DNA from: Clostridia bacterium | GTDB lineage: Bacteria; Bacillota; Clostridia; Christensenellales; Aristaeellaceae | DNA: 64,000 bases | Assembly (NCBI GenBank): GCA_017410455.1 | Contig: JAFQQT010000040.1 | Span: 22,773-86,772 of the forward strand | Direction of reading: 5' to 3' | Part shown: positions 23,251 through 38,538 of the stretch, in pieces | Numbering within the stretch: position 1 is the first letter of the stretch | Layout of the letters: every line of letters starts with the position of its first letter | Position numbers and translations under genes: made by a program | Notes under the pieces: model-generated | What the model was told of the DNA's origin: nothing | Database searches by the model: none | What the model saw: only the letters and a program-made list of their open reading frames with translations

Positions 23251-23280
23251 ATGAACGGTATTCTTTTCGGCACGAACGGT
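23251..23280 (-). promoter_or_regulatory. Paired LytTR-type binding sites
   Basis: Minus-strand repeats ACCGTTCGT (23272-23280) and ACCGTTCAT (23251-23259) both fit the published LytTR consensus [TA][AC][CA]GTTN[AG][TG] at every position. The 12-bp gap between them (21 bp start to start) is the usual spacing. They lie between the GH3 promoter and the kinase promoter and could control either or both. Confidence 0.7.
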
Positions 23281-23327
23281 TCGGATTTGCCTTTCATGCC
23301 CTCCCCGTTGAAACGCCACTCCTATGC

Positions 23328-23357
23328 TTGACGTTTCCAACGCAAAAATGGTAAAAT
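23328..23357 (+). promoter_or_regulatory. Promoter of the two-component system
   Basis: TTGACG (23328-23333) and TAAAAT (23352-23357) are separated by 18 bp and end 36 bases before the GTG start of the kinase gene. Confidence 0.6.
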
Positions 23358-23393
23358 TGACACAGCAAGGAGCAGAAGAGAGGCGTATACAGA

Positions 23394-24740
23394 GTGTTTG
23401 AATACATCAATCTGTTTTATATTCAGCGAGGATGGGGGATTTGCTACATCCTGACCAATGTCGTGCTGATCTTCGGCGGCGTTCTCCTTTTGAATGACAC
23501 CGTCAAAACCGTCAGGGGCATACTTCTCAAGGTGATGGAATGCCTGCTCTGTTTCGGCGTGTATACGCTGCTGGTCAGCATCTATTATGCGTTCTTCGGT
23601 ACAAACCAGATGGATCGCGTCAGCCTGGCTGTCTTTTTTCTTGGATATTCCACACTGCGCAGCAAATATAAACGCCGGGTATGCCTTGTGCGCGGCAGTG
23701 TCTACTATGCCAGCATCATTGTCATGCTGCCCCTGTCTGAACCGCTGGGCGAACTGTTCAAGAATATCAATGTCAGCTATTTCGCTTGGGCACAGTATCT
23801 GACACTTCTTGTTGTCATAATGCTCACCGGAGCAATGATATGGTTCCTGCGCCACTTTGCATTTGAGGCCAAGAGCGTGGTGCATCCTCAGTTCACGTTC
23901 CTGACCGTATCGATTTCCATGCTGACAGTCATCTGTCAGACAGCGGCAATGGCGTGGGATACACCGGGCAGTTACAACCGCTTCGTCTGTGCCGTGCTGT
24001 GGCTGATCAATCTGCTGGCGTATTATATGTTCTACGTCATCAGCCGCATCACAAAGGAGAACGTGTCCCTGCTGACAATGCGCCACAAAGCTGAGATGGA
24101 GCTGGAAAAGTATCAGGTCACCAAGATGAACTTCGATGAGCTCCGCCTGATCCGCCATGAGATCAAGAACCATCAGTTCTATATGAAGGCGCTGCTGGAA
24201 GAAGGCAAGATCGATCAACTGGCGGAATACCTGGAGCGCACATCCATGGCCGAGAGTGGCTTCCTGAAGGAATTCGACTGCGGCAACTACACGCTGAACG
24301 TTATTCTGAACCATTCCATCGGAGCCGCACGCATCAGTGGCGTGGAAATGCAGACCGAGGTGCTCGTCCCCAACCAGCTGCCTTTCCCTGAGGAGGAACT
24401 GTGCAGCCTGCTTTGCAACCTGCTGGATAACGCCATCGAGGCGGCTGCCTCCTCCAATGCTTCCAAGCCAGAGGTATTCATCCGCATCCAGCCCCGTCAG
24501 GATTACCTATTCATCAAACTCGTCAACAGCGTGAATGATCGCGTTACACCCCAGCGCCGTTTGTCGCTGCGCACAACAAAGGCCAATCGCGAACTGCATG
24601 GCTTTGGTACGCAGATCATCAAGCGCATCGTGGATAGCCACAACGGATCAATCAAATACAGCATGGACAAGACCAGCACCGGAGAACATTCCTTTGTCAC
24701 TGACGTGATGCTCGAGCTGCCGAAGGAGGATGAAACATGA
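23394..24740 (+). CDS. GHKL-type sensor histidine kinase (AgrC-like)
   Basis: The 448-residue protein has six or seven membrane segments in residues 10-220, without a large external domain. Then come a coiled-coil linker (EMELEKYQVTKMNFDELR) and the phosphoacceptor region RLIRHEIKNHQFYMKALLEEG. The ATP-binding GHKL domain shows LLCNLLDNAIEAA (N box) and a degenerate G box in HGFGTQIIKRIVDSHNGSIKY. This layout is that of AgrC/ComD-type kinases that sense ligands in their membrane domain. The gene starts with GTG after a GAGAGG site and overlaps the response regulator by ATGA. The signal is unknown; no AgrD-like peptide gene is visible. Confidence 0.88.
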   Translation: MFEYINLFYIQRGWGICYILTNVVLIFGGVLLLNDTVKTVRGILLKVMECLLCFGVYTLLVSIYYAFFGTNQMDRVSLAVFFLGYSTLRSKYKRRVCLVRGSVYYASIIVMLPLSEPLGELFKNINVSYFAWAQYLTLLVVIMLTGAMIWFLRHFAFEAKSVVHPQFTFLTVSISMLTVICQTAAMAWDTPGSYNRFVCAVLWLINLLAYYMFYVISRITKENVSLLTMRHKAEMELEKYQVTKMNFDELRLIRHEIKNHQFYMKALLEEGKIDQLAEYLERTSMAESGFLKEFDCGNYTLNVILNHSIGAARISGVEMQTEVLVPNQLPFPEEELCSLLCNLLDNAIEAAASSNASKPEVFIRIQPRQDYLFIKLVNSVNDRVTPQRRLSLRTTKANRELHGFGTQIIKRIVDSHNGSIKYSMDKTSTGEHSFVTDVMLELPKEDET

Positions 24741-25474
24741 TCCATTGGAACATCGCTGTCTGCGACGACGAAAGGGCTGCCTTGTCAGTGCTGTCCGGCG
24801 CATTGGTGAATGCCTTCCGTCAGCATGATGTGGAGGCGACGGTCGAGATGTTCGTGACCGCCCGCGATCTGGTTCGTCGGATGAAGGAATGTACCTTCGA
24901 CCTGCTCTTTCTGGATATCGAAATGCCGAGCATTGACGGCCTGACCCTCGCCCGCCAGCTCCGTAAGGAGGGCAACCTGATCGACATCATCTTCATCTCT
25001 AACCGGGAGGATCTGGTCTTTGATGCCCTGCGCACCAACCCCAAGGGCTTCATCCGCAAGAGTCGGTTCATTCAAGATGTACCATCTGTCATCAACGCCT
25101 ATTTTGCTGCCCGGCAGGACAACAAATCCAAGGTGCTGATCGTTCATACCCGGGGACAGGTACTCTATATCCCGATCGACAAGCTCACCTACATTGAAGG
25201 CAGCGGGAAGGCACAGCTCGCCCACATCGTTGGACGGAGCGAGCCGCTGGAACTCCGCAAGCTGATGCAGCAGTTGGAGGAAGATCTGAAGCCCTATGGC
25301 TTCCTGCGCATTCACAAGGGCTTTCTGGTCAATTACCGCTTCATCCGCAGGATCAGCGACAATGAGGTCATTCTCACCAACGACCAGAGGCTGCCCATCA
25401 GCCGCCGCAAGGAACAAGAGAGCCGGGATGCTTATTTGGATTTGATGCAGGGCGAGGGATCTCTGATTCTATAA
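24737..25474 (+). CDS. LytTR-family response regulator
   Basis: The 245-residue protein has a receiver domain (residues 1-120: acidic pair Asp10-Asp11, phosphoacceptor Asp60 in LLFLDIEMP, and FISNREDLVFDALRTNPKGFIRK). A LytTR DNA-binding domain follows (about 140-238: YIPIDKLTYIEGSGKAQ, GFLRIHKGFLVNYRFI, DQRLPISRRKEQE). LytTR regulators bind paired 9-bp direct repeats and usually activate virulence, competence or surface genes. The start overlaps the kinase stop (ATGA). Consensus-fitting sites occur upstream of the three GH3 operons on both sides, which makes this the likely activator of those operons. Confidence 0.92.
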   Translation: MIHWNIAVCDDERAALSVLSGALVNAFRQHDVEATVEMFVTARDLVRRMKECTFDLLFLDIEMPSIDGLTLARQLRKEGNLIDIIFISNREDLVFDALRTNPKGFIRKSRFIQDVPSVINAYFAARQDNKSKVLIVHTRGQVLYIPIDKLTYIEGSGKAQLAHIVGRSEPLELRKLMQQLEEDLKPYGFLRIHKGFLVNYRFIRRISDNEVILTNDQRLPISRRKEQESRDAYLDLMQGEGSLIL

Positions 25475-25503
25475 ACCCATATTACAACGCCATTTTCATT
25501 TGA

Positions 25504-25530: not shown

Positions 25531-25536
25531 TTGTTG

Positions 25537-25570: not shown

Positions 25571-25586
25571 AGCTATTTACTTAAGA

Positions 25587-26591
25587 TCAATCAATCAGGA
25601 CGCCCACAGTGGGCTGATTCAGCGCAAAGTCCACACGATCCGTCTGCAGACCGGGATTGACGCCGGGCATATCCATCTGGCCGGGCTCCTTCCACAGCTC
25701 GGTTGTCGCCATGCCGTATTCCGCCACAGGCGCATCATCCGTCAGGGTGATGGCAATAGCGGGCGTGATCTGGGAGTTGAGGATGTACTCGTCGCGGGAG
25801 ATCGCCTGCAGGGTCACATAGTAGGTACCTGCGGGGATGCCCATGGACTCGGTGGTGTAGGAATACAGGTCATAGCAGAAGTACAGCTCCGTACGCAGAG
25901 AACCAACGGGGCCGCCGCTGACTTCCGTACCGACCGGCACATAGAGATGATCGCCCTTGGTCAGATTGTAGCCCCAGATCTCGATGATGCCGGGAGGATT
26001 CTTGCGCAGGGTATCCTTGAGCAGCTCCAGGTCAACGGTATCGCTGTACACTTCCTGCGTACAGGCCTCATCTGCATAGAAGGTGAACTTGGCATAGGGC
26101 AGGTACTCATAGTACAGGTAGTTGTCCAGCGTCCACCAGTCGATGACAAACTGCACGCGGTTGCCGGAGTACATCGCCAGCATTTCAGGGCGCTCCAACG
26201 GAAGACCCACTCCGAAGACGGTGTAGATGTTGATGGGCTCGGGGCTGACGAAGCTGCTGCCTGCCGCCGCAAAGCTGTTCAGGGATACTGCGTAGTGACC
26301 CCACGCCACATCGCTCAGGTCGATAGTGCCGGAGATTTCGCCGGTCTTACCGCCGCGGATGCGCTTGGAGGAGGAAATGTATTCGCCGCTGATTTCCCCA
26401 TCCTTCACCTCAAAGAAGCGGATGAAGTAATAGCTGACATTCTCGTCCACAGCGTTAAAAGAGTAATTGCCAGTTGCAGGATCAAAAACGAAATCCGTCG
26501 GCGGAATAAGAACGTTTTCTTCTGCCGAAGCCATGGCACACATGCCCAGTGCCAGAAGCACTGTAATCAATGCGATAAAGATCTTTTTCAT
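25587..26591 (-). CDS. Secreted protein of unrecognised family, paralogue of the 19138-20085 product
   Basis: The 334-residue protein has a signal peptide (MKKIFIALITVLLALGMCAMASAEEN). The mature sequence parallels the other family member: PPTDFVFDPATGNYSFNAVD, YYFIRFFEV, SSSKRIRGGKTGEISG, WGHYAVSLNSFAAAG, GLPLERPEMLAMYSGN, KFTFYADEACTQEVYSDTVD, PAGTYYVTLQAISRDE and TELWKEPGQMDMPG near the end. It looks like several small beta domains with no catalytic residues. The gene follows the GH3 gene 26679-29579 by 87 bases, the same arrangement as the paralogue, and ends before a strong terminator. A role in binding substrate or anchoring the partner GH3 is a hypothesis only. Confidence 0.72.
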   Translation of the reverse strand: MKKIFIALITVLLALGMCAMASAEENVLIPPTDFVFDPATGNYSFNAVDENVSYYFIRFFEVKDGEISGEYISSSKRIRGGKTGEISGTIDLSDVAWGHYAVSLNSFAAAGSSFVSPEPINIYTVFGVGLPLERPEMLAMYSGNRVQFVIDWWTLDNYLYYEYLPYAKFTFYADEACTQEVYSDTVDLELLKDTLRKNPPGIIEIWGYNLTKGDHLYVPVGTEVSGGPVGSLRTELYFCYDLYSYTTESMGIPAGTYYVTLQAISRDEYILNSQITPAIAITLTDDAPVAEYGMATTELWKEPGQMDMPGVNPGLQTDRVDFALNQPTVGVLID

Positions 26592-26678
26592 GAGGGTGCT
26601 CCTTTCGTTTGATGCATCGGAACGGGTTTTGAGCGGCAGCACAGCATCATACCATGCTGCCGCTTGAGCCCGCTGTGA

Positions 26679-29579
26679 TTACTTATCCAGGGTGGAGCAG
26701 TACTGGTACAGGGCGTTGCGCATGATGTTATGCAGCATATAACGCCCGTACACGTAATCCGTCGCATCGCCGTAGACTGCGATGGTCTGGCGGGAGTTGA
26801 TGTACTGGGAGATGCTCAGCATGTTGCCCTGGATGGACAGCATCGCCTGAGGAGAGTTATACACATCGCCGGCGCCGCCGTCACCGTCGGTGATCAGCAT
26901 ACCCTGCCATCCCCATTCATCGCGCATCATGGTCTTGTACATGCCATAGTGGAACCAGGACATGCCAATGCGGTTCAGGCTGCCCATCACTCCGTTGGCG
27001 CCATATTCCTTGATGCTGATCTCGTAGGGAATCATGTAGATCTCGCGGATGGCCTGCTCGTTGGCCCAGGTGGTGTTGCCGCCGCGGTTGGTGTCGCCGT
27101 CATTCAGCGCAGCGTGCTTGATGAACACGTTGGTGCCGGTGGACTGGATGCCTGCCACGGTGCTGCCGCCGATCTGTCCGGAGATGAAGCCGTCCTCAGA
27201 GTAGTACTCGAAGTTACGGCCGCCAAAGGGAGAACGATGGATGTTCATTGCGGGCGCATACGCGCAGCCGATGCCGAATAGATTGGTCTGATGGCCGTAG
27301 GAAACACCCTCGGCGTAGGCCAGATCACGGTTCCAGGTGGCAGCGATGGTAACCGCACAGGTGAACCAGGTGCCGCCGTTGTACTGGCCGTTACCGGGCT
27401 CGCCGGGGCCGTCCACAGCGATCTGCTGGGGCTTGCCGACGGATTCCACCGCAGGCACCTTCCAGCCCGCATTGCCCTGAACCTCAATGGCTTCGTCGAT
27501 GGAGGTCATGTTGGCCAGTTTGTCGAACAATTCCAGACCTTCCTCGGTGTAGATATCCACGCCGATCAGATCATTGACGGACAGAATGTGGTAATCGCCC
27601 TTGGGCTTCTCATCAACCACAACAGGGTTGCCTGCAGCGGTCTTTTCGCCCTCGACAACGTAATAGGTCTGCTCCCACAGCGGATCCTCAAAGCTGGAAG
27701 CCCGCACGCCGTCCGGGGTATACTGGGCGAAGGGCATCATGTTATTGCCATTGGCATAGATGGTCGAAGTCAGGGTAGTCTTCACACCCTTGATGTAGGT
27801 TTCAAAGGTATACTCGTAATGATCTTCCTCGCGCACGCTCATAGCCTCTACGAGGGCTTCGCTGGCCATTTCATTGGCCGCCTCATTGGACTGATGCGCC
27901 ATGATGGCCTTCATGCCGCCAGCGATATCACTGCGGGACAGGTAACCCTCCAGCATGCAGCCGTCACCGGCAGTCACGTCGTCCATCGCATTCCTGGCGA
28001 TGGCCACATCGGATGCACGGGCGCCGGCGTAAATCGCACCGGGCACATCGCCCTGTGCATCATAAATGATCGCAGCGGGCAGCTCCACCTGCACGGACGC
28101 AGCAGCACGCTCCCCCCACTGGTGAGTATCCTTCTGCACGTTGAAGGAATACAGGCCGTTCTCCAGCACGTAGCAGCCCTGGCCAAAGTTGTCGAAGGAA
28201 GCCAGGTTGTCGGTCTCGAAGGTAATGGTCAGTTCCTGGCTCTCACCGGGCTGCAGGATGTCCGTCTTGTCAAAGCCGATCAGCACGACCTTGGCTTTTT
28301 CCAGACCCACGCCCTTGATGCCGAAGTTCTCCACGTCGGACTGCCAGGGTGCATCCATGTACAGCTGCACAACGTTCTTGCCAGCCACAGAACCGGTATT
28401 GGTCACCTTCACGGTGATGCTGTTGGTGCCATGGGGCTCCAGCTTCACATCGGAGGCAACGATTTCCTCAGTGAAGGTCGTGTAGCTCAGGCCGTAACCA
28501 AAGGGGAACTGCACAACCTGCTCATAACCTGCAACGGAGCCGTTTTTGAAGGTCAGGGTCTTGAATTCCTCAGAATCGAAGTAACCCATCGCATCAGCGG
28601 TCTCAAAGTAACGGTAGCCAACGTAAATGCCTTCCTCGTACTGATAGAAGGTCTGACGGCCGCCGCCGGAACCATTCATAGAAGCGGTGGACAGGTTGGC
28701 GTACTTGTTATCATCGGTGTTGTAGTAAGTCGGATTGGTGGTCATGTCATAGGCATAGGTATCCACCAGACGGCCGGAGGGATTCATGCGGCCAGTCAGC
28801 AGAGTACCAACGCCCACAACGCCCGCCTCACCGGGATGACCAATCCACAGACATGCGTCCACATTGTATTCCGCGCTGTCGATGAAGCCCAGCTCCATCG
28901 GGGCTGCAGAGTTGACCAGCACGATGGTATGGGCAAAGTTCGCCTTACACCAGGCCAGCAGGTCCTTTTCATTCTGATCCAGCTCCAGGTAGGTGGTGCC
29001 GGTCAGGGTGGAGCCGTCGCCGTCGTAGTCCATGGAGGGAGATGCGCCCTCAGCACCGGAACGGCTGATGGTCACGATGGCGTAATCAGTGTAGCCATCC
29101 TTCAGGATGTCCGCCGCGCCAGCCTCGTAGGTACCAATGGGGAATTCGTGGATCCCGCGATAGCTGGTCCAGTCACCCACACCTGAAGGGTCTGCACTGC
29201 CGACGCCACGTTCGCCGCCGCACTGCTCCTCCAGCCAGTACCAGGCGTCTTCATTGACGTCCATACCGGCCTCAAAGAAAGCGTCCGCCAGCAGAACGGT
29301 ATTCAAGTCGTCCTTACCGCCGGCAGAGCCGGTGCCGCCCTCAACGTAGTTGTAGCTCATTGCACCCAGGATGGTCACCTTCGTGCCCTCCGCCAGGGGC
29401 AGAACGCCCGTATTCTTCAGCAATACCGCACCTTCGGATTCCAGCTGCACATTGACGCTGTAGCCCTCAGCGTAGCATTCATTCGCATCGAAGGTTTCCG
29501 CAAATGCAGAACCCGAAACACAGCTGAGCAGCATGGCCAGCGCGCATACTGCACTGATGATCTTCTTACTCAGTTTCAT
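26679..29579 (-). CDS. Secreted GH3 beta-glycosidase with circularly permuted domains
   Basis: This 966-residue protein is a close paralogue of the 20178-23039 product. A signal peptide (MKLSKKIISAVCALAMLLSCVSGSAFAE) precedes the sandwich domain (SEGAVLLKNTGVLPLAEG, ILGAMSYNYVEGGTGSAGG), the fibronectin-like domain (KVTNTGSVAGKNVVQLYMD), a long linker, and the C-terminal barrel (SPFGGRNFEYYSEDGFISG, KHAALNDGDTNRGGNTTW, nucleophile Asp898 in LITDGDGG). Compared with its paralogue it has an extra short Gly/Ser-rich loop (NLSTASMNGSGGGRQ). The ATG at 29579 follows AGGAGG. The gene has its own promoter with a LytTR-type site just upstream of the -35 position and leads a two-gene operon. Confidence 0.9.
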   Translation of the reverse strand: MKLSKKIISAVCALAMLLSCVSGSAFAETFDANECYAEGYSVNVQLESEGAVLLKNTGVLPLAEGTKVTILGAMSYNYVEGGTGSAGGKDDLNTVLLADAFFEAGMDVNEDAWYWLEEQCGGERGVGSADPSGVGDWTSYRGIHEFPIGTYEAGAADILKDGYTDYAIVTISRSGAEGASPSMDYDGDGSTLTGTTYLELDQNEKDLLAWCKANFAHTIVLVNSAAPMELGFIDSAEYNVDACLWIGHPGEAGVVGVGTLLTGRMNPSGRLVDTYAYDMTTNPTYYNTDDNKYANLSTASMNGSGGGRQTFYQYEEGIYVGYRYFETADAMGYFDSEEFKTLTFKNGSVAGYEQVVQFPFGYGLSYTTFTEEIVASDVKLEPHGTNSITVKVTNTGSVAGKNVVQLYMDAPWQSDVENFGIKGVGLEKAKVVLIGFDKTDILQPGESQELTITFETDNLASFDNFGQGCYVLENGLYSFNVQKDTHQWGERAAASVQVELPAAIIYDAQGDVPGAIYAGARASDVAIARNAMDDVTAGDGCMLEGYLSRSDIAGGMKAIMAHQSNEAANEMASEALVEAMSVREEDHYEYTFETYIKGVKTTLTSTIYANGNNMMPFAQYTPDGVRASSFEDPLWEQTYYVVEGEKTAAGNPVVVDEKPKGDYHILSVNDLIGVDIYTEEGLELFDKLANMTSIDEAIEVQGNAGWKVPAVESVGKPQQIAVDGPGEPGNGQYNGGTWFTCAVTIAATWNRDLAYAEGVSYGHQTNLFGIGCAYAPAMNIHRSPFGGRNFEYYSEDGFISGQIGGSTVAGIQSTGTNVFIKHAALNDGDTNRGGNTTWANEQAIREIYMIPYEISIKEYGANGVMGSLNRIGMSWFHYGMYKTMMRDEWGWQGMLITDGDGGAGDVYNSPQAMLSIQGNMLSISQYINSRQTIAVYGDATDYVYGRYMLHNIMRNALYQYCSTLDK

Positions 29580-29681
29580 GGTATTCCTCCTCTTCACATT
29601 TCGCAATCATTGGGACACGCCGGGTAGTTTCTGCCCTCCCTTCTCCATTGTTGCATACATAACAGCTATACCGCTACTGAT

Positions 29682-29729
29682 ATTATAGCATCGATACGGA
29701 GCCAGATGTGCCGACTGCGCTCAAACGGT
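29682..29729 (-). promoter_or_regulatory. Promoter and LytTR-type site of the second GH3 operon
   Basis: A perfect -10 TATAAT (29682-29687) has no good -35 (CACATC at the 17-bp position). About 34 bases upstream of the -10 is ACCGTTTGA (29721-29729), which fits the LytTR consensus at eight of nine positions. A weak -35 with an activator site next to it is the usual design of an activated promoter. Confidence 0.5.
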
Positions 29730-29841
29730 GCTTATGCATCCCGATTTCCCATCCTTTGGTACAAGCGTCTGTTTCTCCGGCATAAGCGGAATTGCATGCG
29801 TGTGAATTTGGACGCAACCGTGTTTTCCCCTTGACCGCACG

Positions 29842-29878: not shown

Positions 29879-32833
29879 TTAACAGGTTTGAACAGAACGA
29901 CGTTTCCGTTCCTGTGCCAAGGTAAGAAGGAGTATGGCCGTTGACACTGCACCCAGCGCAAAAGAAGAAGCCTGTGCCGCCATGAGCATCATCTGCCACC
30001 AGGGCGTCACGGGTACAATTTCACTGGCGGAGGAGAAGCCGTTCATCGCCGCACTGTAATTGGCAATCACATACAGGTAACGGTGAACTGCCTCCCGGAT
30101 GGCGCTGCGGAAAGTGACGCTGGATGCGTAGCTGTCAAACTGACTCTGTGCACCAGTGGGATCCAGGAACAGATCCGTCCCCTGAACAAAGGAGTCGTAG
30201 GACATATAGGCATTCTGCCCCAGTGCCATGTCCGTCAGCACCACGCCATCGAAGCCGAATTCACCGCGCAGGATGTCCTCCATCAGCTCGCTGCTGGCGC
30301 TTGTCCAGATGCAGCCAGCCCGGTTGAAGGAGCTCATCACGCCATGGGCATTGCCCCTGGAGGGTGCAACAGCATACTCAAAGGGTCGCAGGTAAATTTC
30401 ACGAGCGCTCTGCTCGTTGAGCCAGATGCCGATGCCAATGCGGCTGTCCTCCTGATCGTTGAAAGCATAATGCTTCACATAGGGGATCACGCCCTTGGAC
30501 TGCACGCCCTTGATCTCCGCTGCCACAGCCACGCCGGACAGATATGGATCCTCCGAGAAATACTCATGCGCACGTCCACCAAAGGGTGTACGGTGGATAT
30601 TCACGCCGGGAACGTACATGCCCGTCACACCAACGTTCAGCGCATCCTCGCCCAGCGCGCCGCCGACCTTTTCGATCAGCTCCAGATTGAAGGACGCTGC
30701 CCATATGCTTTCGCTGGGGAAGGATACATCCTCTGCGCTGTCCACCACGCCGGTGGGACCGTCCTGCGCTTTGATTTCCGGCAGTGTAACAGAGGTTACG
30801 CCCTTGCTGCCATAGCCTGCCAGCATGACCAGATCCCGCTGTTCCTCCCAGGTCATCTGATCCAGCAGATCATCCCAGGTTTCCGCGTCATAACTTTCGC
30901 TGCGCAGCATAATGAGGCTCAGTCCATTAGAAGCGCCATAGACAGGCATTTCCGCTTCAGGATCCTCAGTAATAGCCTTCATCGTTTTCAGATCCTCGGC
31001 CATCTGCGCTGTCACGGTGAGTGTAATGGCCTCTTTGGGGAAGGTTCCTTCCCAATCGCTGCGGGATACATAGGTTACAGCATTGTCGCCGCGGCCTTCA
31101 TACTTGTTGACGTCGGCAAAATCCAAGCGGTTGGTGATTTCCTCGCCGGTCTCGGAAGACACGGCATAGGTCGTGGTATCCAGGGTGATATCCTGCCCCA
31201 CCAGCGATGCCAAGGCAGCATTGCCATCCTGATCCATGCCGTCTGCAACAGTTTTGCCCTTCAGGGCAAGGATGTTGTTGAGCGCATCATGGGAGGATGT
31301 ACCGGTGGCCAGATAGTACTCGCCAGCTTCGAGAATGTAAGTCTTGTATCCGTTTGCGTCGTAGGTTTTGAACTGCTCTCTGTCTACCGTGATGGTCAGA
31401 GTTTGACTTTCGCCGGGCGCAAGCATTCGGGTCTTGTCAAAGCCACAAAGCTCAACTGAGGCCTTTTCCACGCCATGGGCCTTATCATACTCCGTATAGG
31501 GCTTTTGCAGATAGATCTGCACAACTTCCTTACCGGATACATCACCCGTGTTTGTAACTTTCACGGAGACCGCATAGCTGCCATCCGCCGTTTCAGCGAC
31601 GGAATAGTCGCTGTACTCAAAGGCTGTGTAGCTCAAGCCATAGCCGAAGGGCCGGGAAACGACGCTTTGGTAATCGTAATGCCCTGCGCCGGGACGGCCC
31701 AGCACAATATCCTCATAGCGGGTCTCATAGTAGCGATACCCGACATAGATGCCCTCTGTATACACGCCATACCGGGTCTGCGCGTCAGAGGACAGCAGTT
31801 CACTGTTCTGATACTTTGCGGCGTAGGTGCCAGTGGTATTTTGCAGCACCCAGGCTGCCATCGCCGGAGAGGAGAAATTGTCCTTGACATAGGTATCAGG
31901 CAGCTTGCCGGAGGGATTCACCTCGCCAACCAGTGTCTTGGCAACCGCTGTGACGCCGCCCATGCCCACGTTGCCGACCCATAGGCAAGCATCCACATCC
32001 ACCGTATAGGTCGCACCGTTGACCTCCACCATCCAGTCATCCTGCAGGAAGGCGGTTTCAAAGACAAGCGCTGTGTTGATGAGCACCACAATTCCATCCA
32101 GCTCACCAGCCTTTTTCATGCTGGTCAGTTCGGCAAGGATCTCAATCTCCTCCGCCGTGAGGGAAAGATAGCTCCCGTCGTAGCCATCGCTCTTCTTGGT
32201 GGACAAGTCTGCGCCCTCACCGCCCAGTCGGCTGACGACGACGATGGCAGTACCGCCGGTGGTATGAATGGACGACCGTGCTTCTTCAGAGTAATCAGCC
32301 CAAGCCAATGCATTCACCTTGTAGACCGGATCGCCCTTGCGGCTGTAGGTTACAGCCTGCCGGGAGGGATTCGCAGCGTAAAAATCCCACAGGGTGGTAT
32401 TGACTGCCAGTCCTGCTGTCTCCAGCGCTGTTTTCAGGTTGGTGTACTTGGTTGCATCGATCGCACCGGAGCCAGAGGAGCCATAGCTAAAGCTATATGC
32501 AGACTGCAAAACAGTGCTCACGCTGTCGCCCTTGGAAAGCGGCAGCGCGGAGTTCTTGTTTTTGAGCAGCACCATGCCCTCGGCCTCGGCCTCTTCACTG
32601 ACGGCCTTGCCATAAGCTGTGACCGCTTCGGTGCCCTGATGCCCCGCTTCAAAGTAAACCGCATCATCCTGCTCGTCATCGCTTTTGACGACCTTGTAAG
32701 AGCTGGTCTTCAGGGCGAAGTTCAGGGCAGGGGCATAGGCATTTGCCACCTCGCCCACCATGGACACGACGATTGCCAGCGTCAGGAATGAGACTGCTAA
32801 AGTTCGCCACGTTCTCTTGTTCAGCCACTTCAT
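29879..32833 (-). CDS. Membrane-anchored GH3 beta-glycosidase with circularly permuted domains
   Basis: The 984-residue protein has an N-terminal hydrophobic segment (residues 9-33, WRTLAVSFLTLAIVVSMVGEV) and a second near the C-terminus (about 945-975), so it is probably tethered at both ends with the catalytic part outside. The sandwich domain comes first (AEGMVLLKNKNSALPLSKGD, VLQSAYSFSYGSSG, IVVLINTALVFETAF), then the fibronectin-like domain (KVTNTGDVSGKEVVQIYLQ), then the barrel (IKAQDGPTGVVDS, RTPFGGRAHEYFSEDPYLSG, KHYAFNDQEDSR, nucleophile Asp868 in VVLTDMALG). It starts four bases after the stop of the 32837-33289 gene. Its barrel is closer to the 34145-38344 enzyme type than to the two paired GH3 enzymes. 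Confidence 0.88.
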   Translation of the reverse strand: MKWLNKRTWRTLAVSFLTLAIVVSMVGEVANAYAPALNFALKTSSYKVVKSDDEQDDAVYFEAGHQGTEAVTAYGKAVSEEAEAEGMVLLKNKNSALPLSKGDSVSTVLQSAYSFSYGSSGSGAIDATKYTNLKTALETAGLAVNTTLWDFYAANPSRQAVTYSRKGDPVYKVNALAWADYSEEARSSIHTTGGTAIVVVSRLGGEGADLSTKKSDGYDGSYLSLTAEEIEILAELTSMKKAGELDGIVVLINTALVFETAFLQDDWMVEVNGATYTVDVDACLWVGNVGMGGVTAVAKTLVGEVNPSGKLPDTYVKDNFSSPAMAAWVLQNTTGTYAAKYQNSELLSSDAQTRYGVYTEGIYVGYRYYETRYEDIVLGRPGAGHYDYQSVVSRPFGYGLSYTAFEYSDYSVAETADGSYAVSVKVTNTGDVSGKEVVQIYLQKPYTEYDKAHGVEKASVELCGFDKTRMLAPGESQTLTITVDREQFKTYDANGYKTYILEAGEYYLATGTSSHDALNNILALKGKTVADGMDQDGNAALASLVGQDITLDTTTYAVSSETGEEITNRLDFADVNKYEGRGDNAVTYVSRSDWEGTFPKEAITLTVTAQMAEDLKTMKAITEDPEAEMPVYGASNGLSLIMLRSESYDAETWDDLLDQMTWEEQRDLVMLAGYGSKGVTSVTLPEIKAQDGPTGVVDSAEDVSFPSESIWAASFNLELIEKVGGALGEDALNVGVTGMYVPGVNIHRTPFGGRAHEYFSEDPYLSGVAVAAEIKGVQSKGVIPYVKHYAFNDQEDSRIGIGIWLNEQSAREIYLRPFEYAVAPSRGNAHGVMSSFNRAGCIWTSASSELMEDILRGEFGFDGVVLTDMALGQNAYMSYDSFVQGTDLFLDPTGAQSQFDSYASSVTFRSAIREAVHRYLYVIANYSAAMNGFSSASEIVPVTPWWQMMLMAAQASSFALGAVSTAILLLTLAQERKRRSVQTC

Positions 32834-32836
32834 TGC

Positions 32837-33289
32837 TTACGCCTCCTTCCCGGTCGGATCGGTGTGCCAGCCCAATTCCTGCTTCTGCAGGATGGCAGAA
32901 ATCAGTGTGCACACCCATGCCAGCAGCCCGAAAATGACCGTCAGGATGAAGCCGATGCTGAATTGGTTGCCGTCGATCCCCACCAGCACATTGGAGATGT
33001 AGGAGGCCTCATAGAAGAGGAATTCCAACCATGTCCACAGGCTGAGGAGGTACAGTCCATACTTGCCATTCTTGACCTCAAAGAGTACAAGCAGAACACC
33101 GATATCGATGCATATGCTCTCCATCACGATCACCTTGGTGGACAGAACAGGGGTGAACGTGGAGATCCCGGTCAGAGCGTAAGCGATCAGCATCGCAGCT
33201 GAAAAAGCTACACCCAGTGCAATGAATAAAAACGGAATGCTTCTCTTGTGCCGGATCATGTGCCCGATCCGCTCCATGAAAGCGTGCAT
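32837..33289 (-). CDS. Small four-helix membrane protein, unknown function
   Basis: The 150-residue protein has four hydrophobic segments (about 20-40, 50-70, 77-97 and 110-132), short loops and a basic N-terminus (HMIRHKRS). I recognise no family. The ATG at 33289 follows GGAGG by 10 bases; a TTG at 33298 is too close to that site. The stop lies four bases before the anchored GH3 gene, so the two are probably translated together and may interact in the membrane. Confidence 0.65.
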   Translation of the reverse strand: MHAFMERIGHMIRHKRSIPFLFIALGVAFSAAMLIAYALTGISTFTPVLSTKVIVMESICIDIGVLLVLFEVKNGKYGLYLLSLWTWLEFLFYEASYISNVLVGIDGNQFSIGFILTVIFGLLAWVCTLISAILQKQELGWHTDPTGKEA

Positions 33290-33349
33290 TATGGTCAATC
33301 CTCCTTACATGATCCGGCCTGAAAAAACAACATTCAGGTCAGAAGCGCA

Positions 33350-34018
33350 TCAGTTGACATACGCCGGGTTGTAGGTGATGGGCGTGATCACACCGTCGGT
33401 ATACAGGATCAGGCAGTCTACCAGAGGCGCTGCAGCCTTCATCGTGCCGCCCACACCCTTGATGTCGTTGTTGATCAGCAGCTCCACGGCATTGTAGCCC
33501 TTTTTGATGGAAACATTCTCCACCACGAGGTAGTCCTGAAAGTCCATGACCCGGCTGGAAAATTCACTATAGGACTCAATGGTCAGCGGGAAGTCGAACT
33601 GCTGCTCATATGCCTCGGCATCCTCGTCGTAATTGATGCCCACGATCAGCTGGTCGCCCTTGACGTTGATGCTGTTATACTGGGCAGACAGACGCAGCAC
33701 GATGGTCAGATCATCGATGTCCTCAGCGGCTTCAAATTCAAAGCTCAGGTATGCGCCGGGATAGTACAGCCAGCTGACATAATAGCCGTTGGAGGCCGTC
33801 TTTGAGTCGGTGTCGTCGCCGGTGATCATACCCGTACCCGTCGTCGAACCGGAATAGCCGCTGCCATACTTGTTCTCCAGGTTGGTCAGTTCCGCTTCCA
33901 GCACGTAGACATTGGGCTGGGCTTCTTCAGCCGGTGCAGCTGCTTCACCCTCCGCAAGTGCAGCGCTGCCGAGCAGCAGCAGGGCACAGAATAAGGACAG
34001 AATCCACTTGCATTTCAT
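33350..34018 (-). CDS. Secreted CBM6/CBM35-like carbohydrate-binding protein
   Basis: The 222-residue protein has a signal peptide (MKCKWILSLFCALLLLGSAALAEGE) and a single beta-sandwich. The order YVLEAELTNLENKYGSGYSG, NGYYVSWLYYPGAYLSFEFE, LTIVLRLSAQYN and YNAVELLINN, ending in LVDCLILYTDG, follows CBM6/CBM35 modules (AExA near the start, GYVxxxxxxGxxLxFxV, then a C-terminal xxxxLDxxxL). It carries no enzyme domain, so it is a free-standing binding protein. The ATG at 34018 is 8 bases after AAGGTGG; the longer frame to 34132 has no RBS. It follows the 1399-residue GH3 by 126 bases that include a long hairpin. Confidence 0.68.
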   Translation of the reverse strand: MKCKWILSLFCALLLLGSAALAEGEAAAPAEEAQPNVYVLEAELTNLENKYGSGYSGSTTGTGMITGDDTDSKTASNGYYVSWLYYPGAYLSFEFEAAEDIDDLTIVLRLSAQYNSINVKGDQLIVGINYDEDAEAYEQQFDFPLTIESYSEFSSRVMDFQDYLVVENVSIKKGYNAVELLINNDIKGVGGTMKAAAPLVDCLILYTDGVITPITYNPAYVN

Positions 34019-34046
34019 ACTCATTTCCACCTTCCGGAAAAATTCA

Positions 34047-34102
34047 GCTTGCCGTTGGACGCTGCGAAGCATCTCAGCCTCAGCAGCGCCCAACGGCGTG
34101 AT
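34047..34102. other. Intercistronic hairpin in the large GH3 operon
   Basis: GCCGTTGG-ACGCTGC pairs with GCAGCGC-CCAACGGC between the large GH3 stop and the CBM-like gene. No T-run follows on the minus strand, so an RNA-processing or attenuation element is more likely than a full terminator. Confidence 0.5.
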
Positions 34103-34144
34103 TAAGTCATCTGGGTCAAGTCCCGATGTCAAGTCAATTTGGAC

Positions 34145-37100
34145 TTATTTGCCCCAGGTCACGGAGATCTGGCCATCCGCAGCGGTCCACACACCGGTCT
34201 CGTTCGCGCCAGCGATGGGGCCGGCAGCGCCAACGACCAGCTGAGTGGTGCCGTCAGCCTTCAGGTGCAGAGTCATCTCCACGCTGAAGGGAGCATTAGG
34301 ATCGCCCATGGCAAGGGAGTAAGTGTACTGGTCGCCCTCCTGAGCCTCCGCCTTGGAAGCGGTGGTCTTGAAGAGCTGGTGCTCGCCGATGGACCAGGAG
34401 AAGGTCTCTGCGCCCTCTGCGAAGGTCACATCCTCAGGCACGACCTCGAAGCCGGCCATGCCGCCGCCACCAGGCATACCGCCGCCCATGCCGCCGCTGG
34501 AGACCTCGATCTCCTTATTCTCCTCCAGCTCTTCGTTCATGTCGGGGGTAGGCACGCCGTCCTCGTTGACGAGCAGCTTGTAGGTCCAGGTCAGGAAGCG
34601 GTTGAAGGGCTGCTTGTCATCGTTGACCAGGTCGGAGCAGACCCAGCCGTCGATCAGCACATGGATGGTCATCTTGTACTGGCCGTTCTCGGTGGGCACG
34701 CCGGAAAGGGTCGCCGTGGCAGGATCGAAGGTCATGCCCGCAGGAACGTCGCCCTCGATGGTGTATTCAGCGGTGTACAGGGGCGTCTTCACGCCGTTCT
34801 CGTCCACGGTGTAAGTGCTCTTGGCCTCGCCGGAGAGGTCGAAGACCAGCTTGGCTTCGCTGCCCTTGACGAAGGTACGCTCCTCAGCGGTGAACTCGGG
34901 CAGCTTGGTCAGGGAGTGACCATTCAGGTTGGTCAGGGCATTGGACTCGATGTAGAGGATGCGGGCCGCGAGCATGCGCAGGTAGTACCACTGGCTGTAG
35001 CTCTCGACCTCTTCGCCGCGGTAACCGCCCTTGACGTTCTCGTCCGCCACAGAGCCGCGGTCGTTGTACATCACGGTTGTGGTGGCAAAGTCGTCGCCGT
35101 AGAAGTCATACTCGGTGTCCCACGCGCCGGTGTAGGCGTAGAACTTGCCGGTCTCCGCGTCATAGCGGCCGGAGATGGCAGGAATACGGCCATTCAGAGG
35201 CAGCGGCACGACGAAGGAGCGCATCATGCTGGCCATGGTGGTGCAGCGGGAGAAGCCAGAGTAGCCGTCGGTGATGAAGAAGCCGTTCCAGCCCCACTGA
35301 TCCACGACCATGCCTTCCATCAGGCGGTTGTTGGAGGAGGTGGGCACGCCGCAGAAGCGAGCAAAGCCAGTCATGGAGGAGGAAGAACCGCCCTCCTGCA
35401 TGCACATCTGGAAGACCTTGAAGTAGATCTGACGGGCAGCCTGCTCAGAGAGCCAGACCATGTTCTCCATGCCGTCGCGGCAGGTTTCCTGATCATTCAG
35501 GGCAAAGTGCTTGATGTAGCAGGTCACGCCCATGGCTTCCATGCCGCCGGTCAGGCCAGCGGCCATGTAGCCGCCTACCAGGCCGTCCTGGGACATGTAC
35601 TCGTAGTTACGGCCGGAGAAGGGGCTGCGGTGGGTATCCATTTCGGGGCCGCCCCAGGCAGACCAGCCATTGTACAGGCTCAGATTGCCGCGAACCTGAC
35701 CGATCTCGTAGGCCAGATCGGTATTCCAGGTGGCGGTGATGGTAGGCGCATCCACCCACAGGAAGGTATCGCCGTTGTTGTTGTAGCTGTCCTTCTGCTG
35801 GTTGGCAGCCTTGCCGATATTGGGCAGGCCGGTAGAGCGCCACATATTGGTGTTCTTGCGGATGAGGGTGGTCATTTCCTCCACGGTGAGCTGGTTCATG
35901 AACTCGTTCCACTCATCGGTGAGGGTGCCGTCCTCATCAAACAGCTCCTTGCCGGACATGTCGGACAGCACGATGGCATAGGTGCCAGTCTCCTCGTCCA
36001 CCACGCCGGTTCCCTGAGCCCAGCCCTCAGCGATGGCTTCGTCAGCGGTGTGGTAGGTCTCGTCGCCCTCAATGTCGGCAGCGGAGAACTGGTTCCAGTA
36101 ATCCAGGTGCGCAACGTAGCTCTCGGAGAGCACCAGATCGCCCTCGGTGGGAGTCTCGGGGAAGTAGGTCAGGAAGGTGTCGCGGGTCAGGAGGATTTCC
36201 TTGCTCTCGCCGTCCGCCATCAGATTTTCGGTACGGAGGGAATTGAAGATCTGGTAGTGATCCTCGTCGGTGTCCGCAGCCCAGACGTTGCCGTTCACGT
36301 TTTCGCTGTCCTCGTAGGACTCGGAGAAGATGGCTTCGCTGTTCTTGCCGGAGAAGTCGTCCAGCACCAGGCGGGCAGCGCCCTTGGAGCCAGTCTCAGC
36401 AGTCTCGGCCAGCGTAAAGCGAACCTCGGCGTATTCATCGGTGGTGTCAGCCAGGTCGGTAGCCATGTCATAGTGAGAGGTGTTCATCGCGCGGATGATC
36501 CACTCGCCGGTTTCCATGGTGTAGCCGGTCACGCCCTCGCTGTAAGCGTCGGCGTAATCAAAGGGCACCATGTCCTGCACGTTGACGCTGACCAGAACGG
36601 TCTCACTCTCGCCGGGCTGGATGACGCCGGACTTGCCGAAGCCTGCCAGCGCCACGAAGGACTTCTGCAGCTTCGCAGTTTCGGTGTTATAGGGAGCGGT
36701 AACGTAGATCTGCACGACTTCCTTGCCAGCCATGTCGCCGGTGTTGGTGACAGTCACGGGAATGACGATGGTCTTGACCTTGGCGGGCTTGCCATCGGAG
36801 GAGGACAGGTTCTCCGCCGTCATATCGGTGGCGATGTTGAAGCCCTCTACCAGGGTATCGTCAGCAGATTCCAGCGCGCCGCCGTAAGCGGTGATGGCGT
36901 CCGCATCAATGTTCAGGCTGAAGGTAGTGTAAGAGAGGCCGGAGCCGAACGCGAAGGTCACGTTCTTCTTCCACCATTCACCGGCAGCGTAGGCAGCTTT
37001 CTCCTCGACGGTCTCGCCGGGAGCGTCTGCACGAGACACGGTGTGCACCACGCCGTTGCCCTGATACTGGACGGTCTCATTTTCCAGCAGAGCCTCGTAC

Positions 37101-38344
37101 AGGGAAGCGTAGAGGGTCTCCCAGTAGGCATAGCCGAGGTAGATGTCTTCCTCGTAGTCAGTGCCATAGTAGGCGTTCTGGTTGTGCGAGCCGTAGGTGA
37201 TGGTGGTCTCGCCGCGCTCGAGGTAATCGTCGTAGTTGCCGTTGCCTTCGTAGGCGGTGACCGTCGTGCCGTATTCGCCGACATAGTAGATGTTCTGGCT
37301 GCCGGTCTGGGCGTTCCAGGCAAAGTTGTTCCAGGTGGGATCTGCAGTGAAGTCGGTGTTCCACTCATCGACCAGACGGCCGGAGGGATTGGTCAGACCC
37401 GCCAGGATCGTGCCCACGACAAAGTGGCCGGTTTCGCCGCCGCGGCCCATCAGCAGGATGCCGTTGATGCGCTCATCCTCGCGCAGGTCGTAGCATTCCA
37501 TGGCGTTGGAGGTATTCAGTACCACGATGACCTTCTCGCAGCTCTTGGCCACATAGTCGATCAGAGCCTCCTCCGCATCGGTCAGCTGGAGGTAGTGCTT
37601 GTACTCCGTCCCGTTCTCGTCGTAGTTGGCGCTGGTGCCAGCAACCTGATAGGAGGCGGAAGAGCCCATGGGGCCGCCACCGCGTCCGCTGCTCTGCGCT
37701 GCCGCCACGACTTCGCCGGTGTACAGCGCATCATGCTCGTACTTAGAGGGCTGCTCGCCGTACATGCCGTCGTTGATTTCAGGAGTGACCATGTCCAGGT
37801 CTGCACCTTCGCCGCCGTAGCGAGCCAGGACGATCACGCCAACCTCGCTGTATTCAGCGATGGAGGCTGCGGCTTCCGCAGAAAACTCCAGCGTCTCCTT
37901 GCCGCAGTCGCCGGTGGAGAAGCCCTTGGCAGCGTAGAAATCTGCCATGGTAGGATTGACGTTAAAGCCAGCCGCAGTCAGGCCGTCATAGATCGGGCCG
38001 CGCTCGCTGACAGTGAAGTCGGTATGCTGCTTGTACGCGCTGTTGCTGGTGGGGCCCGCAACAGTCGTAGAAGAAGCGATACCGAATACACTGACCCTCT
38101 CCGAACCGGTCAGGGGCAGCGTGCCATCGTTCTTCAGCAGTACCTGTCCTTCCTCTGCAGTCTGCGTATTCACTTCGCCGACATGCTCCAGAAGCTCTGC
38201 GTAGCTGTCAAAGCGGGAATAATACTTGCCTTCTGCTTCAAGCACAGCGGCAGAAGCAGGACTCACAGCCGTCAGACACATGATCAGCGCCAGCACAGCT
38301 GCTGTAATGGTTCTTCTCAGGTGGTTTCCAGTATACTTGCTCAT
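34145..38344 (-). CDS. Very large secreted GH3 enzyme, permuted, with Ig-like and Gly/Met-rich C-terminal parts
   Basis: The 1399-residue protein has a signal peptide (residues 1-32, ITAAVLALIMCLTAVSPASA). The sandwich domain (QVLLKNDGTLPLTGSERVSVFG, KVIVVLNTSNAMECYD) precedes a fibronectin-like domain (TVTNTGDMAGKEVVQIYVT), a long insert, and the barrel with HRSPFSGRNYEYMSQDG, KHFALNDQETCRDG and the nucleophile Asp1026 in FFITDGYSG. The barrel is followed by a putative Ig domain (MTFDPATATLSGVPTENGQY), a Gly/Met-rich linker and a last beta domain. The ATG at 38344 follows AAGGAGG. It leads a four-gene operon and is about 450 residues longer than its paralogues. Confidence 0.87.
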   Translation of the reverse strand: MSKYTGNHLRRTITAAVLALIMCLTAVSPASAAVLEAEGKYYSRFDSYAELLEHVGEVNTQTAEEGQVLLKNDGTLPLTGSERVSVFGIASSTTVAGPTSNSAYKQHTDFTVSERGPIYDGLTAAGFNVNPTMADFYAAKGFSTGDCGKETLEFSAEAAASIAEYSEVGVIVLARYGGEGADLDMVTPEINDGMYGEQPSKYEHDALYTGEVVAAAQSSGRGGGPMGSSASYQVAGTSANYDENGTEYKHYLQLTDAEEALIDYVAKSCEKVIVVLNTSNAMECYDLREDERINGILLMGRGGETGHFVVGTILAGLTNPSGRLVDEWNTDFTADPTWNNFAWNAQTGSQNIYYVGEYGTTVTAYEGNGNYDDYLERGETTITYGSHNQNAYYGTDYEEDIYLGYAYWETLYASLYEALLENETVQYQGNGVVHTVSRADAPGETVEEKAAYAAGEWWKKNVTFAFGSGLSYTTFSLNIDADAITAYGGALESADDTLVEGFNIATDMTAENLSSSDGKPAKVKTIVIPVTVTNTGDMAGKEVVQIYVTAPYNTETAKLQKSFVALAGFGKSGVIQPGESETVLVSVNVQDMVPFDYADAYSEGVTGYTMETGEWIIRAMNTSHYDMATDLADTTDEYAEVRFTLAETAETGSKGAARLVLDDFSGKNSEAIFSESYEDSENVNGNVWAADTDEDHYQIFNSLRTENLMADGESKEILLTRDTFLTYFPETPTEGDLVLSESYVAHLDYWNQFSAADIEGDETYHTADEAIAEGWAQGTGVVDEETGTYAIVLSDMSGKELFDEDGTLTDEWNEFMNQLTVEEMTTLIRKNTNMWRSTGLPNIGKAANQQKDSYNNNGDTFLWVDAPTITATWNTDLAYEIGQVRGNLSLYNGWSAWGGPEMDTHRSPFSGRNYEYMSQDGLVGGYMAAGLTGGMEAMGVTCYIKHFALNDQETCRDGMENMVWLSEQAARQIYFKVFQMCMQEGGSSSSMTGFARFCGVPTSSNNRLMEGMVVDQWGWNGFFITDGYSGFSRCTTMASMMRSFVVPLPLNGRIPAISGRYDAETGKFYAYTGAWDTEYDFYGDDFATTTVMYNDRGSVADENVKGGYRGEEVESYSQWYYLRMLAARILYIESNALTNLNGHSLTKLPEFTAEERTFVKGSEAKLVFDLSGEAKSTYTVDENGVKTPLYTAEYTIEGDVPAGMTFDPATATLSGVPTENGQYKMTIHVLIDGWVCSDLVNDDKQPFNRFLTWTYKLLVNEDGVPTPDMNEELEENKEIEVSSGGMGGGMPGGGGMAGFEVVPEDVTFAEGAETFSWSIGEHQLFKTTASKAEAQEGDQYTYSLAMGDPNAPFSVEMTLHLKADGTTQLVVGAAGPIAGANETGVWTAADGQISVTWGK

Positions 38345-38450
38345 ATTTACCTCCTTACTCATATCAAACGGATCCATCTGGAAAACTGGGGGCAGTTGCA
38401 GCACCTCCCTTTCTTTATAAGCTCCCATTTCCAGACTATATGCTAATTTG

Positions 38451-38479
38451 ATTTTATCGGAGAAGATAACCACGGGCAA
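38451..38479 (-). promoter_or_regulatory. Promoter of the large GH3 operon
   Basis: On the minus strand TTGCCC (38474-38479) and TAAAAT (38451-38456) are separated by 17 bp, about 107 bases before the ATG, similar to the leader length of the 23039 operon. Confidence 0.5.
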
Positions 38480-38529
38480 GCGACCAGGAATGAACAGCTC
38501 TTCCCCGGAACAAGAAACGAAAATGTAGA

Positions 38530-38538
38530 ACGAACGGT
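38530..38538 (-). promoter_or_regulatory. LytTR-type site upstream of the large GH3 operon
   Basis: Minus-strand ACCGTTCGT fits the LytTR consensus at all positions. A weaker partner, TTTGCTTGT, lies 11 bp further upstream. The surrounding bases (GTGCC then AAA before the site, TTCTA after it) also align with those around 23251-23280. Confidence 0.55.

What the first reader, a model, noticed from the sequence alone, without database searches (positions are those of the whole stretch)
23251..38538. LytTR two-component system with consensus sites at all three flanking GH3 operons
The window's LytTR regulator (24737-25474) sits among three minus-strand GH3 operons. Minus-strand sites fitting the LytTR consensus occur at 23251-23280 (two perfect 9-mers with a 12-bp gap), 29721-29729 (8 of 9) and 38530-38538 (perfect, with a weak partner). 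The context around the first and third also aligns (GTGCC upstream, TTCTA downstream). At 29721 the site is directly upstream of a perfect -10 that lacks a -35. I infer one local regulon in which a membrane-sensing GHKL kinase switches on secreted beta-glycosidases. LytTR control of this kind of gene is not something I know as described.
Basis: partly seen in the sequence, partly recalled or inferred. Interest (0 to 1): 0.82.

Follow-up and report, generated by a model that had tools for sequence, protein, structure and literature searches.

The report
LytTR switch controlling beta-glycosidase genes
A bacterium appears to use a two-protein sensor switch to turn on a neighbouring set of secreted sugar-cutting enzymes, because the switch's probable DNA landing sites sit at one fixed spot in front of the start signals of these genes and recur in several related bacteria.

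Summary
The 9-mer pair at 23251-23280 is the only perfect 21-bp-spaced LytTR pair in the 3.3 Mb genome held. Single 9-mers are at chance level, but comparison rescues sites 2 and 3. All three GH3 promoters carry a half-site (about RCCGTTYRTKCC) ending exactly 30 bp upstream of the -10, plus half-sites further up. GHKL kinase/LytTR pairs lie beside domain-swapped GH3 genes in 16 of 24 stretches. Spaced repeats precede 12 of 14 linked GH3a/b/d/e genes but 0 of 11 GH3c-type genes (leave-one-locus-out). Best explanation: the regulator binds these half-sites directly and activates three GH3 promoters (about 10 genes). Binding, activation, signal and substrate are untested. LytTR regulators close to GH3 genes were reported in Butyrivibrio in 2010 (PMC2914790, passage), so the association is not new; nine paper searches showed me no description of such promoters. 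New variant of a known kind.

The parts
23394..24740 (+). GHKL sensor histidine kinase: six TM-like segments, RHEIKNH phospho-His region (named from recall), HATPase_c_5
   Evidence: Pfam PF14501 63.6 bits; hydropathy; residues
24737..25474 (+). LytTR response regulator (receiver plus LytTR DNA-binding domain), overlapping the kinase gene by 4 bp
   Evidence: Pfam PF00072 54.8 and PF04397 54.0 bits; best solved relative by sequence ComE 4cbv, E 8e-8
23248..23280 (-).
   Evidence: only perfect 9-mer pair in the genome; leave-one-locus-out p 0.003; coordinates
23140..23187 (-). GH3a promoter: proximal half-site ACCGTTGAATCC (23187-23176), 7 bp, -35 TTGAAC (23168-23163), 17 bp, -10 TATACT (23145-23140)
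20178..23039 (-). GH3a: secreted domain-swapped GH3 (GH3_C - Fn3-like - GH3_N)
   Evidence: Pfam; signal-peptide-like N terminus; nucleophile Asp kept as TDG
19138..20121 (-). secreted protein without family hit, 39% identical to 25587-26642; follows GH3a
17317..19017 (-). protein with 12 TM-like segments and no family hit; operon membership inferred from spacing
14901..17315 (-). GH3e: GH3 of ordinary domain order, no TM-like segment; 1 bp after the previous gene
   Evidence: Pfam
29758..29790 (-).
   Evidence: leave-one-locus-out p 0.007 / 0.005; coordinates
29682..29729 (-).
26679..29579 (-). GH3b: secreted domain-swapped GH3, 75% identical to GH3a; start ATG 29579
   Evidence: Pfam for the ORF 26679-29606
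25587..26642 (-). secreted protein without family hit, follows GH3b
38487..38590 (-).
   Evidence: pair 38558-38527 p 0.007 / 0.008 but carried by its right half
38451..38479 (-). GH3d promoter: -35 TTGCCC (38479-38474), 17 bp, -10 TAAAAT (38456-38451), 7 bp after the proximal half-site
34145..38344 (-). GH3d: secreted domain-swapped GH3, 1399 aa, first gene of its group
   Evidence: Pfam for the ORF 34145-38542; start chosen from AAGGAGG and N terminus
33350..34132 (-). secreted protein without Pfam hit; relatives beside GH3c/GH3d-type genes in 5 other stretches, 4 of which I scanned and which carry Flg_new repeats
32837..33298 (-). small membrane protein, co-transcription likely
29879..32833 (-). 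GH3c: domain-swapped GH3 with N- and C-terminal TM-like segments
   Evidence: Pfam

Best explanation
A GHKL kinase and its LytTR response regulator control the surrounding secreted or membrane-tethered GH3 operons directly. The phosphorylated regulator binds 12-bp half-sites (about RCCGTTYRTKCC). In the window one half-site ends 30 bp upstream of the -10 at all three GH3 promoters, just behind the -35. Further, mostly stronger half-sites lie about four helical turns or more upstream (ending 70 and 91 bp from the -10 at GH3b, 70 and 122 bp at GH3d, 102 and 123 bp at GH3a). From there the regulator helps RNA polymerase at promoters with poor or middling -35 boxes. Shown: the proteins, the half-sites, their place relative to the promoter, and their recurrence in relatives. 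Inferred: that this regulator does the binding, activation rather than repression, phosphorylation, the stimulus (a glycan, its product, or a peptide), and the enzymes' substrate.
For: Unique perfect pair in the genome, next to the LytTR genes. In 300 family genomes a near-perfect pattern occurs in 3: this one and two others, each within 80 bp of a kinase/LytTR operon or a LytTR-DUF3021 gene pair, so the motif is LytTR-like in this family. Regulator homologues lie beside GH3a-d-type genes in 16 of 24 stretches, window included. Leave-one-locus-out matrix: 12 of 25 linked GH3 upstream regions at p<0.05 against shuffles (11 of 25 against tiles), and 3 of 15 kinase/regulator regions. Spacing test with the 9-mer consensus only: spacing 21 in 8 of 25 GH3 regions at score 16 or more, against a mean of 0.94 and a maximum of 3 at other spacings; at score 15 it is 12 against a mean of 5.5 and maximum of 10. 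Offset test: half-site ending 30 bp from the -10 in 8 of 17 promoters against a mean of 0.79 at other offsets; 0 of 400 column-permuted matrices reach it. Columns aligned on the -10 without a motif model: T at 37, 57 and 78 bp. The GH3d of G528, not used in training, has a pair about 140 bp upstream.
Against: No binding or expression data. 2 of 14 linked non-GH3c genes lack a significant pair, and 0 of 11 GH3c-type genes have one; some GH3c genes are internal to operons, others are not shown to be. 9 of 17 promoters have no half-site of score 3 or more at 30 bp (one kinase promoter has it at 31). 8 of 24 regulator stretches, and 2 class-level ones, have no GH3a-d-type gene. RCCGTTYRTNCY is not enriched genome-wide: 19 matches against 47 for the reversed pattern. 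Sites of similar score occur elsewhere: 13.4 about 0.9 kb upstream of a C42 GH3 gene (GH3b's pair is 13.7) and 19.4 on contig C62. A second GHKL-LytTR pair (contig C47) has the same type of half-site upstream. In G247 only a C-terminal fragment of the regulator is present beside the site. I picked training half-sites and saw the 30-bp spacing by eye before testing it; p-values are uncorrected; several gene starts are my guesses; in L042 the -10 fits 4 of 6; in two of the eight promoters (L091, L104) the half-site belongs to the pair that selected them. In one search I chose the -10 anchors and left out 6 of the 17 promoters.
Confidence: 0.77

Rival explanations
1. Site 1 serves autoregulation of the kinase-regulator operon only, and the matches at the other two GH3 promoters are chance.
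For: Site 1 lies in the divergent intergenic region, 113 bp upstream of the kinase start. Many LytTR systems regulate themselves (recalled). Kinase promoters in L096, L101 and L104 carry such pairs.
Against: The half-sites point at GH3a and a further half-site lies 30 bp from the GH3a -10, while the kinase's own promoter (TTGACG-18-TAAAAT) has none at 22-39 bp (best score -3.6). In G247 the site is in front of GH3 and downstream of the regulator remnant. GH3b and GH3d score at p<=0.008 without window training data.
Confidence: 0.09
2. The sites are used by another LytTR regulator of the same genome (for example the one on contig C47), not by the neighbour.
For: The C47 regulator has ACCGTTCGTACC and a second half-site 20 bp on, just upstream of its own gene, and lies near a GH30 glycosidase.
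Against: Sites, GH3 genes and homologues of the window's regulator occur together in G008 (65% identity) and G168 (57%), and beside a 68% identical regulator fragment in G247.
Confidence: 0.07
3. The system is a peptide-pheromone (Agr-like) quorum switch whose output happens to be glycosidases, not a glycan sensor.
For: The kinase has six TM-like segments and a HATPase_c_5 domain as AgrC-type kinases have (class recalled).
Against: No AgrB-like hit among the window proteins scanned; short peptides were not searched. The recurring partners are GH3 enzymes and secreted proteins. This rival concerns the signal only and is compatible with the regulon.
Confidence: 0.2
4. Chance: degenerate motif matches in upstream regions.
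For: Single 9-mers are below expectation, and 3-mismatch pairs are noise in this genome (85 against 118 control).
Against: Spacing, offset and leave-one-locus-out tests, and the recurrence across genera.
Confidence: 0.05

Closest known systems
LytTR regulators beside GH3 genes in Butyrivibrio proteoclasticus B316 (PMC2914790, passages read)
   Same: LytTR response regulators each close to a secreted GH3 enzyme with a C-terminal TM helix; window GH3c also has a C-terminal TM-like segment
   Different: The passage gives gene neighbourhood only; no binding sites or promoter geometry in what I read
VirR/VirS of Clostridium perfringens (PMC2838878, passages read)
   Same: Direct repeats in a fixed, helically phased position just upstream of the -35 at its targets; activator
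   Different: Targets include toxin genes; two boxes in a core of about 50 bp, whereas here half-sites reach 122-123 bp upstream of the -10
AgrA/ComE-type LytTR activators (recalled; ComE structure 4cbv is the best PDB hit by sequence)
   Same: GHKL kinase plus LytTR regulator; 9-bp direct repeats with a 12-bp gap
   Different: Those control quorum-sensing, virulence or competence genes; no pheromone gene seen here
LytTR gene Crum_2623 in Cellulosilyticum ruminicola (PMC5733062, passage read)
   Same: LytTR gene linked to glycosidase (cellulase) genes, transcript raised on filter paper and xylan
   Different: Other enzyme types; no binding site or mutant in the passage
CoxC of Afipia carboxidovorans (PMC11347149, passages read)
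   Same: more than two direct repeats at two-turn spacing bound by a LytTR domain
   Different: One-component repressor overlapping the -35; CO sensing
Hybrid two-component systems of Bacteroides polysaccharide loci (mentioned in PMC5320581, passages read)
   Same: Local sensor-regulator next to the glycosidase genes it would control
   Different: AraC-type output in one fused protein (recalled); here separate GHKL kinase and LytTR regulator

Membership tests
LytTR response regulator (AgrA/AlgR/LytR type) | Receiver domain followed by LytTR DNA-binding domain | tested here: met
   PF00072 54.8 bits and PF04397 54.0 bits, both over cut-off
LytTR response regulator (AgrA/AlgR/LytR type) | 9-bp direct repeats spaced about 10-13 bp at targets | tested here: met
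   Site 1 perfect; spacing 21 peak over 25 GH3 regions. Repeat definition from PMC11347149. At GH3d only a weak partner
LytTR response regulator (AgrA/AlgR/LytR type) | Binds DNA at these repeats | not testable with these tools
   needs a binding assay
AgrC/ComD-like GHKL kinase | Multi-TM sensor with HATPase_c_5 | tested here: met
Agr quorum-sensing system | AgrB and AgrD genes beside the kinase | tested here: inconclusive
   None among the window proteins scanned; small peptides and the rest of the genome were not searched
Agr quorum-sensing system | Regulator belongs to AgrA by curated model | tested here: not met
   NF046049 25.4 bits against a cut-off of 400
GH3 glycosidase | GH3_N and GH3_C domains with catalytic Asp | tested here: met
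   Pfam; Asp kept as TDG/TDM in place of TDW in the four swapped ones. Activity untested
VirR-like activator promoter | Boxes in fixed position just upstream of the -35 at all targets | tested here: inconclusive
   Met at all 3 window GH3 promoters: half-site ends 7 bp before the -35 position. Among all 17 promoters tested 8 have it 30 bp from the -10

The most novel reading that the evidence does not exclude
A regulatory module patchily spread over several genera and families of one bacterial order: GHKL-LytTR switch, membrane-tethered or secreted domain-swapped GH3 enzymes and a secreted accessory protein. Its promoter code (half-sites near 30, 50, 70 and 91 bp from the -10) differs from the two-repeat LytTR rule, and it would serve as a counterpart of the Bacteroides hybrid two-component glycan switches.
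Probability: 0.4. Interest if true: 0.65.

Novelty: new variant of a known kind. Interest (0 to 1): 0.52.

Why it matters
LytTR switches are best known from virulence, competence and bacteriocin control (recalled; also stated in PMC10222030, passage). If they run glycan-enzyme clusters across several lineages, the regulator of a recurrent secreted GH3 type becomes testable, and the fixed half-site position allows regulons to be predicted from sequence in uncultured bacteria.

Tried and rejected
Counting single 9-mers or loosely matched pairs in the window or genome gives noise. The idea that GH3a, GH3b and GH3d lost their catalytic Asp (no SDW/TDW at that place) was rejected after alignment: the Asp is kept as TDG. 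A carbohydrate-binding module in the accessory protein 33350-34132 was suspected by eye, but Pfam gives nothing for it and Flg_new repeats in the 4 relatives scanned (one with a weak CBM-like hit below cut-off); a similar-looking protein in L103 has no hit. A five-member array at GH3d was my first reading; two of the five score below zero and are now called weak. Naming the organism failed: the one named relative of the regulator found was 25% identical.

Literature limits: nine searches were run. My statement that I saw no published promoter description for such genes rests on their listings and on passages of PMC5320581, PMC2914790, PMC11347149, PMC2838878, PMC5733062 and PMC10222030; no paper was read whole. 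The original LytTR consensus paper (PMC117183) is not held, so WMMGTTNRK is recalled and matches what the finding used.
Full report
What is there. The window is part of contig C27 of a 3.3 Mb genome in 93 contigs, 92% complete. A kinase gene (23394-24740 +; HATPase_c_5, six TM-like segments) overlaps a response-regulator gene (24737-25474 +; receiver plus LytTR). Around it on the minus strand lie four GH3 genes with swapped domain order, GH3_C - Fn3-like - GH3_N (20178-23039, 26679-29579, 29879-32833, 34145-38344), and one GH3 of ordinary order, 14901-17315. From gene spacing they form three groups: GH3a with two unknown genes and GH3e; GH3b with one unknown gene; GH3d with a secreted protein, a small membrane protein and GH3c. 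The grouping is my inference. All five GH3 keep the catalytic Asp, as TDG or TDM in the swapped ones.

The observation. All three reported sites exist where stated. Only site 1 stands on its own statistics: it is the sole perfect 21-bp-spaced consensus pair in the genome, where 0.10-0.25 would be expected. Single consensus 9-mers number 16 against 24.8 expected in the window, so sites 2 and 3 meant nothing alone.

Relatives. I searched the regulator in 300 genomes of the family (38 with a match at E<=1e-20), in the 18 held of the genus at E<=1e-30 (1, its own genome), in two other genera (3 of 29 and 3 of 9), in 396 genomes of the order (7 at E<=1e-33) and 391 of the class (3 at E<=1e-38); the own genome is counted. 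The system is patchy. Long stretches were fetched only for the best matches (to about E 1e-34): 24 with the window and its own C42 paralogue. Of these, 16 carry genes whose best match is one of the window's swapped GH3 (a-d) and 8 do not. Two class-level stretches fetched later do not either. The class is by best tblastn match; I did not check domain order in every relative.

Sites in relatives. In G008 the same layout recurs: a pair between a divergent GH3 (of ordinary type, 59% identical to GH3e) and the kinase gene, pointing at the GH3, and another pair in front of a GH3d relative. In G247 the pair lies in front of a GH3a relative 80% identical over 455 residues; upstream on the same strand is only the C-terminal part (residues 145-245) of a regulator, so that copy looks broken or incomplete. 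In G168 the GH3b relative directly follows the regulator gene and has a pair in between. In G432, another family of the order, the GH3a relative has two identical 9-mers 21 bp apart. In 300 family genomes the stricter pattern occurs only in this genome and in two others: one in front of a histidine kinase/LytTR operon (pointing at the divergent gene), one in front of a LytTR-DUF3021 gene pair. That supports reading it as a LytTR site.

Tests. With the 9-mer consensus alone, spacing 21 occurs in 8 of 25 GH3 upstream regions at score 16 or more, against a mean of 0.94 and a maximum of 3 at other spacings; at score 15 it is 12 against a mean of 5.5 and a maximum of 10, at score 17 it is 4 against 0.12. 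For 15 kinase/regulator regions it is 2 against 0.33, maximum 2, at score 16. With a 12-bp matrix trained without the tested locus, 12 of 25 GH3 regions and 3 of 15 kinase/regulator regions reach p<0.05 against shuffles; against tiles of the same stretch 11 and 3. Split by type this is 12 of 14 GH3a/b/d/e and 0 of 11 GH3c. The three window promoters give p 0.003, 0.007 and 0.007; at GH3d the right half scores 14.7 and the left -0.5. The one other window gene tested there (25587-26642) has no pair (p 0.53). The GH3d of G528, not used in training, has a pair scoring 19.4 about 140 bp upstream of its start; a 19.4 match also occurs on contig C62 downstream of a GH3 gene.

Promoter geometry. I noticed the 30-bp spacing by eye (note) and then tested it on 17 promoters: 16 flagged plus the G528 one. 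A half-site of score 3 or more ends 30 bp from a -10 candidate in 8 of 17, against a mean of 0.79 at other offsets; the next offset, 70 (5 of 17), reflects the distal pairs by which the promoters were chosen. 0 of 400 column-permuted matrices reach the value at offset 30. Of the eight, six are half-sites other than the selecting pair; L042 uses a 4-of-6 -10. In the window the geometry is exact three times: half-site, 7 bp, -35 position, 17 bp, -10. Aligning 11 of the 17 promoters on a -10 chosen by me, without a motif model, gives T at 37, 57 and 78 bp and C at 41 bp among the best columns outside the -10; the six left out are L041 GH3d, L099, L150 and the three kinase promoters.

Specificity inside the genome. 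Around 16 GH3_C hits only the three window genes have such a site directly in front (score 13 or more); one more match of 13.4 lies about 0.9 kb upstream of a C42 GH3 gene, and for two hits (L120, L121) I did not locate the gene start. The half-site RCCGTTYRTNCY occurs 19 times in the genome (reversed control 47): 4 in the window, all in front of GH3a or GH3d, and 1 just upstream of another LytTR regulator on contig C47. That regulator could cross-talk.

Mechanism. LytTR regulators mostly bind upstream of the -35 and activate (PMC11347149, passage), and VirR boxes sit in fixed helical phase there (PMC2838878, passage). The geometry here, with a weak -35 at GH3b, fits activation. The window's kinase promoter has no half-site at the matching place. 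The signal is unknown; the recurring partners suggest a glycan or its product, while the kinase type also fits a peptide.

Known or new. LytTR regulators close to secreted GH3 enzymes were noted in Butyrivibrio in 2010 (PMC2914790, passage), a LytTR gene beside cellulase genes in 2017 (PMC5733062, passage), and a LytTR regulator with kinase in a Roseburia arabinoxylan locus (PMC5320581, passage). What I did not find in nine searches is a binding-site or promoter description for such clusters. I file it as a new variant of LytTR control, not a new kind of system.

Noticed in passing
L146:3636-3667 (own genome, contig C47): A second GHKL-LytTR pair (3750-5776) has the same type of half-sites directly upstream (ACCGTTCGTACC and a partner 20 bp on) and a GH30-type glycosidase at 5988-7775; possible cross-talk or a second glycan-linked LytTR system.
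   Followed up: partly
L046:491-520 and L047:9371-9400: The same LytTR pair stands in front of a histidine kinase/LytTR operon opposite a transporter-like gene (G261), and in front of a LytTR-DUF3021 gene pair (G201).
   Followed up: partly
L043:1862-2167 (G247): Only the C-terminal 101 residues of a regulator 68% identical to the window's remain beside a GH3 gene that still has the site pair in front.
   Followed up: partly
window 17317-19017 (-): 566-aa protein with 12 TM-like segments and no Pfam or NCBIfam hit, 1 bp upstream of the GH3e gene.
   Followed up: partly
window 19138-20121 and 25587-26642 (-): Two secreted proteins, 39% identical to each other, no family hit, each directly following a GH3 gene (GH3a, GH3b).
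   Followed up: partly
window 33350-34132 (-) and its relatives in L050, L097, L099, L105: Secreted protein that recurs beside GH3c/GH3d-type genes; these four relatives carry Flg_new (Listeria-Bacteroides) repeats, the window copy has no Pfam hit.
   Followed up: partly
window 38700-39620: About 1 kb between the GH3d promoter and the M16 peptidase gene with GC-rich palindrome-like stretches and no clear long gene; may be a mobile-element remnant.
   Followed up: no
window 43328-43645 (-): ParE-like toxin hit (26.5 bits, cut-off 23).
   Followed up: no
L096, L097, L098, L099 (G432): One genome of about 1.8 Mb carries at least four separate kinase/LytTR pairs, each with GH3 genes of the swapped type nearby.
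   Followed up: partly
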